DNA of 43,926 bases from Prevotella sp. Its GTDB lineage: Bacteria; Bacteroidota; Bacteroidia; Bacteroidales; Bacteroidaceae. Position numbers and translations under genes: made by a program. The notes beneath the pieces were generated by a model, which was given only the letters and a program-made list of their open reading frames with translations, was not told where the DNA came from and made no database searches. How positions within the stretch are numbered: the stretch's first letter is position 1; each line of letters begins with the position of its first letter. Shown here in pieces: positions 27,176-30,500 of the stretch. The DNA lies in contig JAFUZD010000069.1 in NCBI GenBank assembly GCA_017476785.1, positions 66,028-109,953 on the forward strand. The letters run 5' to 3'.

Positions 27176-29041
27176 ATGGCAGAACAATTAGAAGTGAAAG
27201 AGCTGGACCACGTGGTGGTTCGCTTCTCGGGTGATTCCGGCGACGGTATGCAGCTGGCCGGCAACATCTTCTCTACGGTCAGTGCCACCGTGGGCAACGG
27301 CATCTCTACATTCCCCGACTACCCCGCAGACATCCGGGCTCCGCAAGGCTCACTGACGGGCGTCAGCGGATTTCAGGTGCACATTGGTGCCGGCCGCGTG
27401 TACACACCGGGCGACCAGTGCGACGTGCTGGTGGCAATGAATGCTGCCGCGCTGAAGACACAGCTGAAGTATGCCAAGCCGCAGGCTACCATCATCATCG
27501 ACACCAATTCGTTCGGACCGAACGACCTGAAGAAGGCGCAGTTCCAGACTGACGACTATCTGGGCGAGCTGGGTGTTGACCCCGACCGCGTCATCCAGTG
27601 CCCACTGACACAGATGGTGAAAGACTGTCTGGCAGACTCGGGCCTCGACAACAAGTCTGTCCTGAAGTGCCGCAATATGTTTGCTCTCGGACTGGTGTGC
27701 TGGCTGTTCAACCGCGATCTGGAGCTGGTGAACAACTTCCTGCGCGAGAAGTTCGCTAAGAAACCTGCCATTGCAGAGAATAACATCAAAGTGGTGCAGG
27801 CTGGCTATGACTACGGCCACAACACCCACTCGAGCGTGCCCGCCACCTATCGCATTGAGTCGAAGGAGAAAGTGGCAGGACGCTATATGGACATCACCGG
27901 CAATAAGGCCACGGCCTATGGGCTGATTGCTGCCGCTGAGCGCGCAGGGCTGCGCCTCTTCCTCGGCAGCTATCCCATCACGCCGGCCACCGACATCCTG
28001 CACGAGCTGTCGAAGCATAAGTCGTGCGGAGTCATCACCGTGCAGTGCGAGGACGAAATCAGCGGTGCAGCCTCGGCCGTGGGTGCTGCGTTTGCTGGTG
28101 CGCTGGCCGCCACCAGTACCTCGGGACCCGGCATCTGCCTGAAGAGCGAGGCCCTCAATCTGGCCGTCATCGACGAGCTGCCGCTCGTGGTCATCGACGT
28201 GCAACGCGGCGGTCCCTCCACGGGTCTGCCCACCAAGAGCGAGCAGACCGACCTGCTGCAGGTGCTCTACGGTCGCAATGGCGAGAGCCCGATGCCCGTC
28301 ATCGCCGCCCTCAGTCCTACCGACTGTTTCGATGCTGCCTACGAGGCCGCCAAGATAGCGCTGGAGCACCTGACGCCCGTCGTCCTGCTTACCGATGCTT
28401 TCATCGCCAACGGCTCCAGTGCGTGGAAACTGCCGGTGCTAAGCGAGCTGCCTGCCATACAGCCGCACTACGTAACGCCGGAGCAGAAGGACAACTACAC
28501 GCCTTACGAGCGCGACGAGGAGACGAAGGTGCGCTACTGGGCCATCCCCGGGCAAGAGGGTTATACCCATATCCTCGGCGGACTGGAGAAGGACGGCCGC
28601 ACCGGTGCCATCTCTACCGACCCCGAGAATCACGACCAGATGTGCCGCCTGCGTGCCGAGAAGGTGGCTCGCATCCCTGTGCCCGACTTGCAGGTGCAGG
28701 GCGATGCCGATGATGCTGACCTGCTCATCGTGGGCTTCGGCAGTACCTACGGCCATCTCTATTCGGCTATGGATGAGCTGCGCAGCCGCGGTCACAAAGT
28801 GGCACTGGCGCAGTTCCGTCACATTAATCCGCTGCCCAAGAACACGGCCGACGTCCTGCTGAAGTACAAGCAAGTGGTCGTAGCCGAGCAGAATCTCGGT
28901 CAGCTGGCCGCCTATCTGCGTTCGAAGGTCGACGGCTTTACGCCTGTGCAGTACAACGAAGTGAAGGGACAGCCTTTCGTGGTTTCCGAACTTGTGAAAG
29001 CTGTAGCCCCCCTCCTTGCCTCCCCCGAGGGGGAGGAATAG
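27176..29041 (+). CDS. korA: 2-oxoglutarate:ferredoxin oxidoreductase, alpha (fused gamma-alpha) subunit
   Basis: A 621-aa subunit with the gamma-type domain first (VVRFSGDSGDGMQLAGNIFS, residues 10-180) and then the alpha domain (about 205-600; GSYPITPATDILHELSKH, QCEDEISGAASAVGAA, SGPGICLKSEALNLA). With KorB it oxidatively decarboxylates 2-oxoglutarate (or runs the reductive direction) using CoA, TPP and ferredoxin in the cytoplasm. The last dozen residues (APLLASPEGEE) are encoded by a GC-rich inverted-repeat arm (29007-29036), and the stop follows directly. A DUF559 gene intervenes before korB, splitting an operon normally adjacent in relatives. Confidence 0.94.
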   Translation: MAEQLEVKELDHVVVRFSGDSGDGMQLAGNIFSTVSATVGNGISTFPDYPADIRAPQGSLTGVSGFQVHIGAGRVYTPGDQCDVLVAMNAAALKTQLKYAKPQATIIIDTNSFGPNDLKKAQFQTDDYLGELGVDPDRVIQCPLTQMVKDCLADSGLDNKSVLKCRNMFALGLVCWLFNRDLELVNNFLREKFAKKPAIAENNIKVVQAGYDYGHNTHSSVPATYRIESKEKVAGRYMDITGNKATAYGLIAAAERAGLRLFLGSYPITPATDILHELSKHKSCGVITVQCEDEISGAASAVGAAFAGALAATSTSGPGICLKSEALNLAVIDELPLVVIDVQRGGPSTGLPTKSEQTDLLQVLYGRNGESPMPVIAALSPTDCFDAAYEAAKIALEHLTPVVLLTDAFIANGSSAWKLPVLSELPAIQPHYVTPEQKDNYTPYERDEETKVRYWAIPGQEGYTHILGGLEKDGRTGAISTDPENHDQMCRLRAEKVARIPVPDLQVQGDADDADLLIVGFGSTYGHLYSAMDELRSRGHKVALAQFRHINPLPKNTADVLLKYKQVVVAEQNLGQLAAYLRSKVDGFTPVQYNEVKGQPFVVSELVKAVAPLLASPEGEE

Positions 29042-29508
29042 TTACCTTTTGCGGTGGCATACGATTACCAGACGGCCGACCCCATCCTGTATGGAATCCT
29101 GAAGGGCTATGCAAAGGAGAACCGACAGCACCCGACCGAGGCAGAGTCTGTGTTGTGGCAATGCCTGAAAGGCCGTGGGTTAGGCGTGAGTTTCAAGCGA
29201 CAGCACGTCATCGGTGAGTATATTGCAGACTTTGTCTGTATAGCTTCAAGGCTGATTATAGAATTAGACGGAGGCTATCACCAGTTGTCAGAGCAGCAGA
29301 CCAGTGACGAAGCACGTCAGCAATGGTTGGAGTCGCAGGGCTTCGCGGTAATCCGGTTCACCAACGAAGAGGTAATGGGAGATATTGAGCACGTAATAGA
29401 GACAATAGAGCAACATTTATAAAAGAACAAACAGTAACAAGATTATGATAGCAAATACCGACAGCAAAACGATGATTCCCTCCCCCTCGGGGGAGGAAAG
29501 GTGGGGGG
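29007..29508. mobile_element. Candidate mobile unit: DUF559 gene between 30-bp inverted repeats
   Basis: Left arm 29007-29036 and right arm 29479-29508 are inverted repeats identical at 28 of 30 positions. Each holds the perfect palindrome CCTCCCCCGAGGGGGAGG (inner) and a run of six C or G (outer). Between them are one DUF559-type nuclease gene and the korB start codon. The arms lie inside the korA 3' end and korB 5' end, and are read in frame in both. No target-site duplication is evident. No named element family is recognised; mobility is inferred from structure and from related arms elsewhere in the window. Confidence 0.6.
29054..29422 (+). CDS. DUF559 domain protein (VSR-like PD-(D/E)XK endonuclease fold)
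   Basis: 122 residues covering a full DUF559 domain: TEAESVLW (28-35), GVSFKRQHVIGEYIADFVC with Asp59, LIIELDGGYH with Glu70, Asp72 and His76, and a C-terminal FAVIRFTNEEV strand-helix. DUF559 belongs to the very-short-patch-repair endonuclease group; the acidic residues for a catalytic site are present. The start is GTG at 29054, 12 bp after the korA stop; no ATG suits the full domain. It lies between korA and korB inside an inverted-repeat pair and is co-oriented with them, so it would be transcribed with the kor operon. It has no metabolic link to KorAB. Biological role of free-standing DUF559 proteins is not established. Confidence 0.88.
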   Translation: MAYDYQTADPILYGILKGYAKENRQHPTEAESVLWQCLKGRGLGVSFKRQHVIGEYIADFVCIASRLIIELDGGYHQLSEQQTSDEARQQWLESQGFAVIRFTNEEVMGDIEHVIETIEQHL

Positions 29509-30500
29509 CCTCCGACTACAAGAAAGGACAGCCGCGGTGGTGTCCCGGCTGCGGTGACCACTTCTTCCTCGCCTCACTGCATAAGGCAATGGCCGAGGTG
29601 GGCGTGGCTCCGCACAAAATGGCCGTCATCTCGGGTATCGGATGCTCCAGCCGACTGCCATACTACGTCAACACGTATGCGATGCAGACCATCCACGGTC
29701 GCGCCGCTGCCATCGCCACGGGTGCTAAGGTGGCTAACCCCGACCTCTGTGTGTGGCAGGTGAGCGGCGACGGCGACGGACTGGCCATCGGCGGCAACCA
29801 CTTCATTCACGCGATGCGCCGTAACATCGACCTCAATATGATTCTGCTCAACAACCGCATCTACGGCCTGACCAAAGGACAGTACAGCCCCACCAGTCCC
29901 CGCGGCTTCGTCTCGAAGTCGAGCCCTTATGGCACGGTGGAGGATCCTTTCCGCCCGGCAGAGCTCTGCTTCGGTGCGCGCGGTCATTTCTTCGCTCGCA
30001 GCGTAGCCACCGATGCGGCCGAGACACAGGCCATCCTCAAAGCGGCCTATCTGCATAAGGGTGCCTCGGTATGCGAGATTCTGCAGAACTGCGTCATCTT
30101 CAACAATGGCTGCTATGACCCCGTCTACACGAAAGAGGGACGCTCGAAGAACGCCATCTACGTGCGCCACGGCGAGAAGCTGGTGTTCGGTCCCAACTCG
30201 GAGTATGGCCTCGTGCAGGAGGGATTTGGCCTGAAGGTGGTGGAAATCGGTAAGGACGGCTATACGCTCGACGACGTGCTCGTCCACGATGCCCACTGCG
30301 AGGACAACACGCTGCAACTGAAGCTGGCGATGATGTCCAACGAAGACGGCTTCCCCATAGCCCTCGGTGTCATCCGCGACGTGGAGGCTCCCACCTACGA
30401 TGCTGCCGTGCATCAGCAGCTGGCCGAGGTCTCGGCGCAGAAGAAGTACCACAGCTTCGCTGAACTGCTGGAAACCAATGATACGTGGGAGGTGAAGTAA
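29445..30500 (+). CDS. korB: 2-oxoglutarate:ferredoxin oxidoreductase, beta subunit
   Basis: A 351-aa TPP-binding subunit. Visible are the WCPGCGDHFF motif (about residues 32-41), GCSSRLPYYVNTY, and the TPP/Mg motif GDGDGLAIGGNH..LNMILLNNRIYGLTKGQ. It forms the oxidoreductase with KorA. The N-terminus is unusual: residues about 12-22 (PSPSGEERWGA) are encoded by the right inverted-repeat arm (29479-29508), and the family sequence begins near SDYKKGQPRWCPGC. The ATG at 29445 lies inside the candidate element, 22 bp after the DUF559 stop. No internal ATG is available before the conserved part, so the repeat-encoded leader is probably translated. Confidence 0.95.
   Translation: MIANTDSKTMIPSPSGEERWGASDYKKGQPRWCPGCGDHFFLASLHKAMAEVGVAPHKMAVISGIGCSSRLPYYVNTYAMQTIHGRAAAIATGAKVANPDLCVWQVSGDGDGLAIGGNHFIHAMRRNIDLNMILLNNRIYGLTKGQYSPTSPRGFVSKSSPYGTVEDPFRPAELCFGARGHFFARSVATDAAETQAILKAAYLHKGASVCEILQNCVIFNNGCYDPVYTKEGRSKNAIYVRHGEKLVFGPNSEYGLVQEGFGLKVVEIGKDGYTLDDVLVHDAHCEDNTLQLKLAMMSNEDGFPIALGVIRDVEAPTYDAAVHQQLAEVSAQKKYHSFAELLETNDTWEVK

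What the first reader, a model, noticed from the sequence alone, without database searches (positions are those of the whole stretch)
29007..29508. DUF559 nuclease gene framed by 30-bp inverted repeats, inserted between korA and korB
Seen: arms 29007-29036 and 29479-29508 are inverted copies matching at 28/30, each a perfect 18-bp palindrome plus a C6/G6 run, enclosing one gene for a VSR-like PD-(D/E)XK domain with intact acidic residues. Known: korA and korB encode two subunits of one enzyme and are normally adjacent; DUF559 proteins are of unsettled function. Inference: this is a minimal mobile unit (nuclease plus palindromic ends), functionally comparable to REP/RAYT systems but with a different enzyme. 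I know of no described element with this plan.
Basis: partly seen in the sequence, partly recalled or inferred. Interest (0 to 1): 0.85.

Follow-up and report, generated by a model that had tools for sequence, protein, structure and literature searches.

The report
Mobile nuclease gene with palindromic ends
A small DNA-cutting-enzyme gene bracketed by its own matching palindromes turns out to be one member of a widespread family of apparently mobile units that sit between or inside working bacterial genes without breaking the reading frame.

Summary
The unit (29006-29509) has inverted arms (31 nt, 94%), each an 8-bp hairpin with a 2-nt centre plus a C-run tail, around a DUF559 gene. It overlaps the ends of korA and korB.

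It is not a one-off. In the genus, 88 of 106 DUF559 loci are bracketed by matched inverted arms, against 4 of 205 displaced brackets. Arms match their own partner better than another unit's in the same genome in 184 of 200 comparisons, and arm and protein similarity go together. At korA-korB, two other genomes share a unit with 1/474 mismatches while the flanks differ at 128/1400 sites. Arms recur in other phyla (9 of 18 loci fetched).

In 49 of 215 units the frame runs open at least 150 aa on both sides; hosts confirmed by Pfam include MetH, LeuS, MetG and RecG. Uninterrupted MetH is the rule. DUF559 lineages tend to keep their sites, and the profile matches a mobile-intron endonuclease (3r3p, E 1.2e-7).

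Best reading: a homing-type selfish nuclease unit with REP-like ends. Mobility over evolutionary time is well supported; the mechanism is inferred.

The parts
29006..29509 (+). whole unit, arm to arm (504 nt)
   Evidence: inverted pair; empty orthologous sites; a related unit at the same junction in two other genomes (L070, L351) differs at 1/474 positions against 128/1400 in its flanks, so arms and gene travel as one block
29006..29036 (+). left arm: C-run tail 29006-29018, then hairpin 29019-29036 (8 bp, 2-nt centre GA), hairpin facing inwards
   Evidence: it also codes the altered C-terminus of KorA, stop at 29039-29041
29054..29422 (+). DUF559 (PF04480) nuclease gene, 122 aa, GTG start
   Evidence: 119.6 bits; invariant E31, W35, D59, F60, E70 in 119 sequences; profile matches PDB 3hrl (E 7e-31) and 3r3p 'Mobile intron protein' (E 1.2e-7)
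29445..29478 (+). start codon and first codons of korB, lying inside the unit (MIANTDSKTMI...)
   Evidence: several other units upstream of genes show a similar ATG plus polar codons before the right arm (by eye, e.g. L011, L014, L018)
29479..29509 (-). right arm: hairpin 29479-29496 (centre TC), tail 29497-29509; read through in the korB frame
27176..29041 (+). korA (2-oxoacid:ferredoxin oxidoreductase alpha), last codons coded by the unit
   Evidence: POR_N, POR, PFOR_II; different C-terminus in empty relatives
29445..30500 (+). korB (beta subunit), first codons coded by the unit
   Evidence: TPP_enzyme_C; different N-terminus in empty relatives

Best explanation
The unit is a selfish, homing-type mobile gene. 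Shown by comparison: a DUF559 nuclease gene and two cognate inverted arms (tail plus hairpin) form one block that is present or absent at orthologous sites, can be far more alike between genomes than its flanks, occurs at dozens of sites, and has gene-less two-arm relatives. It sits where it does little harm: at stop/start junctions of tight operons, where its sequence supplies a stop and a start, or in frame inside linkers of conserved proteins. Inferred: the nuclease cuts an allele or DNA that lacks the unit, at or near the site. Repair from a unit-bearing copy then copies the whole block, which gives site-faithful lineages. The palindromic arms serve as ends where repair switches template, or as secondary cut sites (other palindromes), which would give the occasional jump to a new gene.
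For: Bracketing (score at least 15): 88/106 genus loci against 4/205 displaced brackets (at 20, 79/106 against 3/205), 48/79 named loci against 1/152 and 18/27 phylum loci against 1/51, 9/18 plasmid-record loci of other phyla against 3/36. Unit integrity: own arm pair better in 184/200 same-genome comparisons, 3 ties; arm and protein similarity rho 0.44, 0 of 999 permutations as high. Movement: unit 1/474 mismatches against flanks 128/1400; empty, filled and two-arm korA-korB junctions in one genus; a pair at another junction (L027, L034; gltX by eye) falls inside a nine-row set with korAB units, local support 99. Homing signs: 31 recurring sites hold 136 of 215 units; for the 16 sites with at least three distinct proteins the label needs 27 changes on the tree (15 is the least possible) against 78.2 shuffled, 0 of 200 as low. 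The nuclease profile matches the mobile-intron endonuclease 3r3p. Hosts of in-frame units confirmed by Pfam: MetH, IleS-type, PaaZ-type, Ham1, RecG, MetG, LeuS.
Against: No cleavage or copying was observed. No target-site duplication was seen by eye and no clean junction, though the empty relatives are other species. For homing one expects co-converted flanks, but in L070/L351 mismatches begin 8 nt right and 20 nt left of the ends I chose. Pairs were picked for high DUF559 identity, and one of the six (L094/L166: 62/649 against 88/1399) goes the other way. Site-faithfulness could also come from vertical descent with losses: several same-site pairs have DUF559 less alike than the flanks (L011-L018 0.76 against 0.84; L114-L121 0.76 against 0.89/0.84). 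Eighteen of 106 genus loci, and nine of 18 plasmid-record loci including E. coli, show no arms at the threshold. The tree has few columns and many open forks. The single-domain protein (122 aa) lacks the DNA-binding extension described for EDxHD homing enzymes.
Confidence: 0.55

Rival explanations
1. REP/RAYT-like transposition: the nuclease recognises its hairpin arms, perhaps as single strands at the replication fork, cuts at their base and moves arm-gene-arm, and gene-less arm pairs in trans, to new places. Site-faithfulness then reflects descent after rare insertions.
For: Arms are cognate to their unit. Gene-less two-arm copies exist in the own genome, and of the two folded the L005 pair folds strongly (z -5.0; a cut-off stretch of L004 z -2.8). 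A real RAYT-type gene (Y1_Tnp, 40.8 bits) between its own inverted pair sits at the very same korA-korB junction in L342. Within one genome units have different arms at different sites.
Against: PD-(D/E)XK nucleases by themselves are not known to join strands (recalled). Gene-less copies are few in the own genome: 5 exact tail-hairpin matches; at 2 mismatches 26 against 16 in the reversed control. Lineages tend to hold their site.
Confidence: 0.25
2. Passenger: GC-rich palindromes are spread by other means (RAYT, slippage, recombination), and a DUF559 repair-type nuclease (as proposed for Caulobacter VsrA) was trapped between two of them and is copied by ordinary recombination.
For: A DUF559 protein has a host role in Caulobacter (PMC12907096, passages read). 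Some DUF559 genes lack arms. GxxExxY genes are also bracketed by inverted repeats, and by eye so are IVP-like and Y1_Tnp genes at the same junction, so bracketing is not peculiar to one enzyme.
Against: Arms are unit-specific within one genome (184/200) and track the protein. A passenger of general repeats should show neither.
Confidence: 0.13
3. Ordinary conserved host gene with terminator hairpins on both sides.
For: A G+C-rich inverted repeat beside a gene can be a terminator.
Against: Present in 6 of 53 korA-korB junctions. In 49 of 215 units the reading frame runs open through both sides, where terminators would cut off the host gene. Same-locus displaced brackets seldom show such pairs (4/205).
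Confidence: 0.03
4. Defence or restriction nuclease.
For: Weak PADLOC hits to DpdF (18.9 bits) and mREase_II (14.8 bits); four cyanobacterial plasmid copies lie near DUF1156 genes or a BREX pglX.
Against: No methylase or partner gene inside the window unit, and it sits in a metabolic operon.
Confidence: 0.04

Closest known systems
REP/RAYT systems (REPtrons, REPINs)
   Same: Single gene beside cognate, inverted, tail-plus-hairpin repeats; gene-less two-repeat copies; several unlike families per genome (RAYT features: passages of PMC3733652 and PMC3116915).
   Different: Enzyme is DUF559, not a HUH Y1 transposase; no GTAG at the start of the 176 arms; the gene lies inside the block at many sites and often in frame within host genes; few gene-less copies in the own genome.
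Homing endonucleases, EDxHD family (I-Bth0305I)
   Same: Profile of 119 sequences matches 3r3p 'Mobile intron protein' (E 1.2e-7; its identity with I-Bth0305I is recalled); recurrent sites in conserved genes; patchy presence.
   Different: No intein domain in the host proteins scanned, frame continuous, no separate DNA-binding extension, palindromic ends present.
Rickettsia palindromic elements (RPE)
   Same: Palindrome-bearing sequence inserted in frame in unrelated metabolic genes (review PMC10969869, passage read).
   Different: RPEs are described there as about 150 bp with a conserved peptide ORF; no nuclease is named. These units carry their own enzyme.
DUF559 / Vsr-like proteins (Caulobacter VsrA)
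   Same: Same Pfam domain.
   Different: VsrA is studied as a genomic repair-type nuclease; no palindromic ends or mobility of the gene in the passages read.
GxxExxY (PDDEXK_3) and 23S_rRNA_IVP genes at the same junction
   Same: Single small genes between inverted repeats at the korA-korB junction.
   Different: Other protein families; GxxExxY arms look like arrays of about 10-bp motifs and not hairpins (by eye).

Membership tests
DUF559 (PF04480) | profile match above the curated cut-off | tested here: met
   119.6 bits against 20.6
REP/RAYT (REPtron) | HUH Y1 tyrosine transposase gene | tested here: not met
   Pfam gives DUF559, MTES_1575 and DUF2726 only; the Y1_Tnp gene at the same junction in L342 is a different protein
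REP/RAYT (REPtron) | inverted hairpin repeats beside the gene, cognate to it | tested here: met
   88/106 against 4/205; 184/200 own pair better; rho 0.44
REP/RAYT (REPtron) | GTAG tag at the foot of the hairpin | tested here: not met
   0 of 176 arms have GTAG in their first 8 letters; commonest first four letters AAGC, AGCC, GCCC, GCCT, GACC; arm starts are set by alignment
REP/RAYT (REPtron) | many dispersed repeats or doublets in the genome | tested here: inconclusive
   own genome only: 7 exact palindromes; 5 exact tail-hairpin copies, 26 against 16 in the control at 2 mismatches
Homing endonuclease element | nuclease homologous to a known homing endonuclease | tested here: met
   3r3p E 1.2e-7 over profile positions 41-116; that 3r3p is a homing endonuclease rests on its record name and recall
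Homing endonuclease element | same site occupied across species, others empty | tested here: met
   31 recurring sites; empty korAB and MetH sites
Homing endonuclease element | embedded in a self-splicing intron or intein when inside a gene | tested here: not met
   host frame runs straight through and no intein domain is found in the ten host proteins scanned (7, 3); intron RNA models were not run on those loci
Homing endonuclease element | cleaves the empty allele and is copied by repair | not testable with these tools
   needs biochemistry and crosses
MITE / insertion sequence | target-site duplication and clean empty site | tested here: inconclusive
   no duplication seen by eye and several codons differ at korAB and MetH, but the empty relatives are other species
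Rickettsia palindromic element | short peptide-coding palindrome without an enzyme | tested here: not met
   unit carries a nuclease gene

The most novel reading that the evidence does not exclude
DUF559 is the mobilising enzyme of a new class of autonomous palindromic elements: a PD-(D/E)XK-type nuclease that recognises its own hairpin ends and spreads arm-gene-arm, and bare arm pairs, into bacterial genes in frame. This would be a transposase-free counterpart of REP/RAYT and the missing driver type for coding palindromic repeats such as RPE-like inserts. GxxExxY nucleases, with their own arms, would be a second such class.
Probability: 0.35. Interest if true: 0.92.

Novelty: new variant of a known kind. 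Interest (0 to 1): 0.78.

Why it matters
DUF559 is a widespread family of unsettled role: it was found in 62 of 100 genomes drawn from this genus and 109 of 198 drawn from the phylum. Linking it to cognate palindromic ends turns a protein of unknown function into the likely engine of a mobile unit and gives direct tests. It also bears on an open point in print: one class of REPs (CGTC) is said to lack a dedicated transposase (PMC3733652, abstract passage). Units that sit in frame inside housekeeping enzymes without splicing offer a natural catalogue of tolerated domain-insertion sites and a way by which selfish DNA reshapes proteins. Fourteen held papers mention DUF559 (listing with the start of each abstract); passages of one were read. 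No title or abstract start in that listing describes palindromes around a DUF559 gene (one abstract spells out CRISPR).

Tried and rejected
Arms kept stop-free in all six frames to allow in-frame insertion: rejected. 37 of 176 arms are stop-free, against 36.1 for shuffles of the same letters.

Single-arm hairpin stability as evidence: rejected, z -0.8 for both arms.

Rfam family at 28900-29600: none at the gathering score. Defence family: only weak PADLOC hits.

Structure prediction: switched off, so fold comparison was not possible. Sequence search of solved structures was used in its place.

A cross-phylum sample through L175 ('Ca. Nitrotoga'): the genomes reached were largely the same places as (8 of its 30 loci were new by sequence; these were not analysed), so it was not counted. 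Plasmid records were used for other phyla.

kor label alone on the tree: too few labelled rows (shuffles as low in 27 of 500), replaced by site classes from both flanks.

Mismatched-arm control: 410 of 2096 reach the threshold because arms share a family consensus. The displaced-bracket and same-genome controls are the fairer ones. The 146 of 146 is biased because arms were chosen by their own alignment; one search is the unbiased version.
Full report
What is there. The window lies in an unnamed 2.72-Mb, 139-contig genome; the nearest named DUF559 hits are Prevotella and Prevotellaceae assemblies. Between korA (27176-29041) and korB (29445-30500) lies a 122-aa DUF559 gene (29054-29422; 119.6 bits) framed by inverted arms 29006-29036 and 29479-29509 (31 nt, 94%). 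Each arm is a C-run tail and an inward-facing hairpin of 8 + 8 bases around a 2-nt centre. The arms are part of the neighbours: KorA ends in residues coded by the left arm, and KorB starts on an ATG inside the unit and reads through the right arm. Compared with the empty relative L041, about the last seven codons of korA, the spacer and about the first seven codons of korB differ.

The own genome. It holds three DUF559 matches. L002 is intact, continuous in frame with an ispF-like downstream sequence (name recognised by eye), and sits between a different inverted pair, CCCACCCCCATCCCCTCCCG.../...CGGGAGGGGATGGGGGTGGG. L003 is a remnant beside a third palindrome type. The window's palindrome has 7 exact sites in the genome, its reversed control none. 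Among the five sites outside the window, short two-arm units without a gene occur, some inside reading frames: L004 in an aminotransferase-like ORF, L005 in a MATE-like ORF; L010 has a single arm in a MurF-like ORF (names recognised by eye). The L005 pair folds well beyond shuffles (z -5.0).

Genus-wide test. DUF559 occurs in 62 of 100 genomes. I took all 106 listed matches of at least 90 bits and left out weaker or fragmentary rows. Inverted-repeat score between 350-nt flanks: at least 15 in 88 of 106; brackets displaced by 800 nt in the same loci, 4 of 205; mismatched pairs from different loci, 410 of 2096. The last figure is high because arms share a family consensus. At threshold 20 the figures are 79, 3 and 129. 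Within one genome the own pair beats the cross pair in 184 of 200 comparisons, with 3 ties. Across genomes, protein and arm similarity correlate among the 88 armed units (Spearman 0.44; 0 of 999 permutations as high; 3755 pairs). Arms and nuclease therefore form a cognate unit.

Wider test. 80 named loci (the best 80 of a capped scan): 48 of 79 scored reach 15, displaced brackets 1 of 152 (L214 dropped for a short flank). 29 phylum loci (the best matches): 18 of 27, displaced 1 of 51 (L235 and L250 dropped). Some named loci are the same genomes as genus loci, for example L029/L197, so the sets are not fully independent. From plasmid records (43 with a match) I fetched 18. Nine reach 15: two Sphingomonas loci, Novosphingobium, Qipengyuania, Sinorhizobium meliloti, two Deinococcus, Pseudanabaena and one Picosynechococcus; brackets displaced by 700 nt, 3 of 36. 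The nine without are E. coli, Photobacterium, Azospirillum, Shinella, Methylobacterium, Sinorhizobium sp. K101, two Synechocystis and Picosynechococcus 7002 (14.5).

In-frame insertion. Of 215 collected units, 4 have an internal stop. In 49 the frame stays open for at least 150 aa on both sides, in 33 only downstream, in 7 only upstream, in 122 neither. Not every host was identified, and some of the 49 could be old multidomain proteins. Pfam finds DUF559 inside MetH (L184, L173, and another position in L171), IleS-type synthetases (L203, L207), a PaaZ-type protein (L158) and Ham1 (L212), and in RecG (L194), MetG (L195) and LeuS (L086). Several are named isolates (Flavobacterium cucumis L184, Winogradskyella litoriviva L173, Tamlana nanhaiensis L194), so assembly error is an unlikely cause. 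With MetH flanks joined, 188 of 198 Bacteroidota genomes match; the list shows 150 rows (its cap), from 150 genomes, each covering at least 188 of the 192 joined residues without a break. Of 30 such loci fetched, my search pattern displayed 21; empty linkers span 126-144 nt, against 522-591 nt in the ten filled loci displayed of 15 tried. The unit sits in the linker before the B12-binding domain; up to about twelve linker residues differ in L184, fewer in L173. Some in-frame units (the RecG class; L165, L169 and L189 in MetH) score below threshold, though Pro/Gly-rich arm-like remnants are visible in several translations (L165, L189, L194); they may be older or domesticated.

Movement. At korA-korB, the 60 closest loci from two searches gave 53 distinct junctions (L346 lacked korA; 6 were repeats): 6 DUF559 units, 2 two-arm remnants by eye (L337, L347), 11 GxxExxY units, 5 with an ORF resembling 23S_rRNA_IVP (only L047 tested by Pfam), 1 with a Y1_Tnp gene (L342), and 28 with none of these recognised. 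In G059 and G744 (L070, L351) the unit differs at 1 of 474 positions and the flanks at 128 of 1400; flank mismatches begin 8 nt right and 20 nt left of ends that I chose by eye (Fisher 6e-16). I profiled six pairs, picked for high DUF559 identity. Four more have fewer mismatches per site inside the unit (L019/L025 11/689 against 129/1349; L096/L215 4/492 against 95/1400; L079/L144 44/445 against 208/1379; L111/L166 64/658 against 328/1366); L094/L166 goes the other way (62/649 against 88/1399). Several other same-site pairs have DUF559 less alike than the flanks. A pair at another junction (L027, L034; gltX by eye) falls within a nine-row set of otherwise korA-korB units with local support 99.

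Homing or transposition. Similarity of both flanks, by single linkage, defines 31 recurring sites with 136 units (one class, L029/L197, is one locus held twice). Among them are argG-argC, metH, korAB merged with a korB-paralogue junction, yicC-gmk, ispF, leuS and recG (names partly by eye). For the 16 sites with at least three distinct proteins the label needs 27 changes on the DUF559 tree (15 is the least possible); shuffled mean 78.2, none of 200 as low. The tree has few columns and many open forks, and kin genomes contribute. Lineages thus tend to keep their site, as homing genes do, with occasional moves. A profile of 119 sequences matches PDB 3r3p 'Mobile intron protein' (E 1.2e-7) besides 3hrl 'Endonuclease-Like Protein'. 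That 3r3p is the I-Bth0305I catalytic domain is recalled; a review describes that enzyme as the EDxHD homing type (PMC3943268, passages read).

Verdict. The unit is real, cognate and mobile over evolutionary time. The most likely engine is nuclease-driven homing with palindromic ends as borders or secondary sites; a hairpin-guided transposition model is the main rival. It fails a tested defining feature of REPtrons (no HUH enzyme, no GTAG), of intron/intein homing elements (no splicing unit found) and of RPEs (it carries an enzyme), so it is filed under none of them. Literature: 14 held papers mention DUF559 (listing; passages of one read) and 2 mention GxxExxY (listing). Searches on palindromic elements, EDxHD/Vsr and REPs showed no listed title or abstract start with this plan. 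Most subscription papers and bioRxiv are not held, so prior description elsewhere cannot be excluded.

Noticed in passing
L053, L059, L048, L256-L285 and other loci: GxxExxY (TIGR04256 / PDDEXK_3) genes, present in 65 of 100 genus genomes, are also bracketed by inverted arms (25 of 31 loci against 1 of 54 displaced), which look like arrays of about 10-bp motifs such as CACGGATT/ACAGATT. Eleven of 53 korA-korB junctions hold one.
   Followed up: partly
L047, L341, L064, L358, L058: An ORF (L047: 23S_rRNA_IVP, 92.9 bits; the others judged by eye) between TTAAGAGTTAAGAATTAAGAA-like repeats and their inverse at the same korA-korB junction: a third gene type in the same slot.
   Followed up: partly
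L342: A Y1_Tnp (RAYT-type) gene between an inverted TGTAGGGACAAATTCTTGTATCTGTCC-like pair at the korA-korB junction; a natural positive control for REP-type units in this slot.
   Followed up: partly
L002, L032, L073, L092, L114, L121, L160: One site class has DUF559 open in frame into the downstream gene; in L002 and L032 this reads as ispF (name by eye), apparently a fusion protein.
   Followed up: no
L007 1380-1540: In the own genome a two-arm unit spans the start of an ORF so that one arm is read inside what looks like a signal peptide.
   Followed up: no
L005/L006 (G000:C16 about 68.1-68.9 kb): Tandem truncated palindrome copies followed by a full two-arm unit, both in or at the end of one MATE-like gene; looks like local amplification.
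   Followed up: no
L319, L322, L323, L326: Cyanobacterial plasmid DUF559 genes lie beside DUF1156 genes or a BREX pglX, unlike the metabolic settings seen in Bacteroidota.
   Followed up: no
L165, L169, L189, L181, L191, L194, L210, L221: DUF559 in frame inside MetH (first three) or the RecG site class with arm scores below 15 (site classes; L194 RecG by Pfam): candidates for domesticated or decayed units.
   Followed up: no
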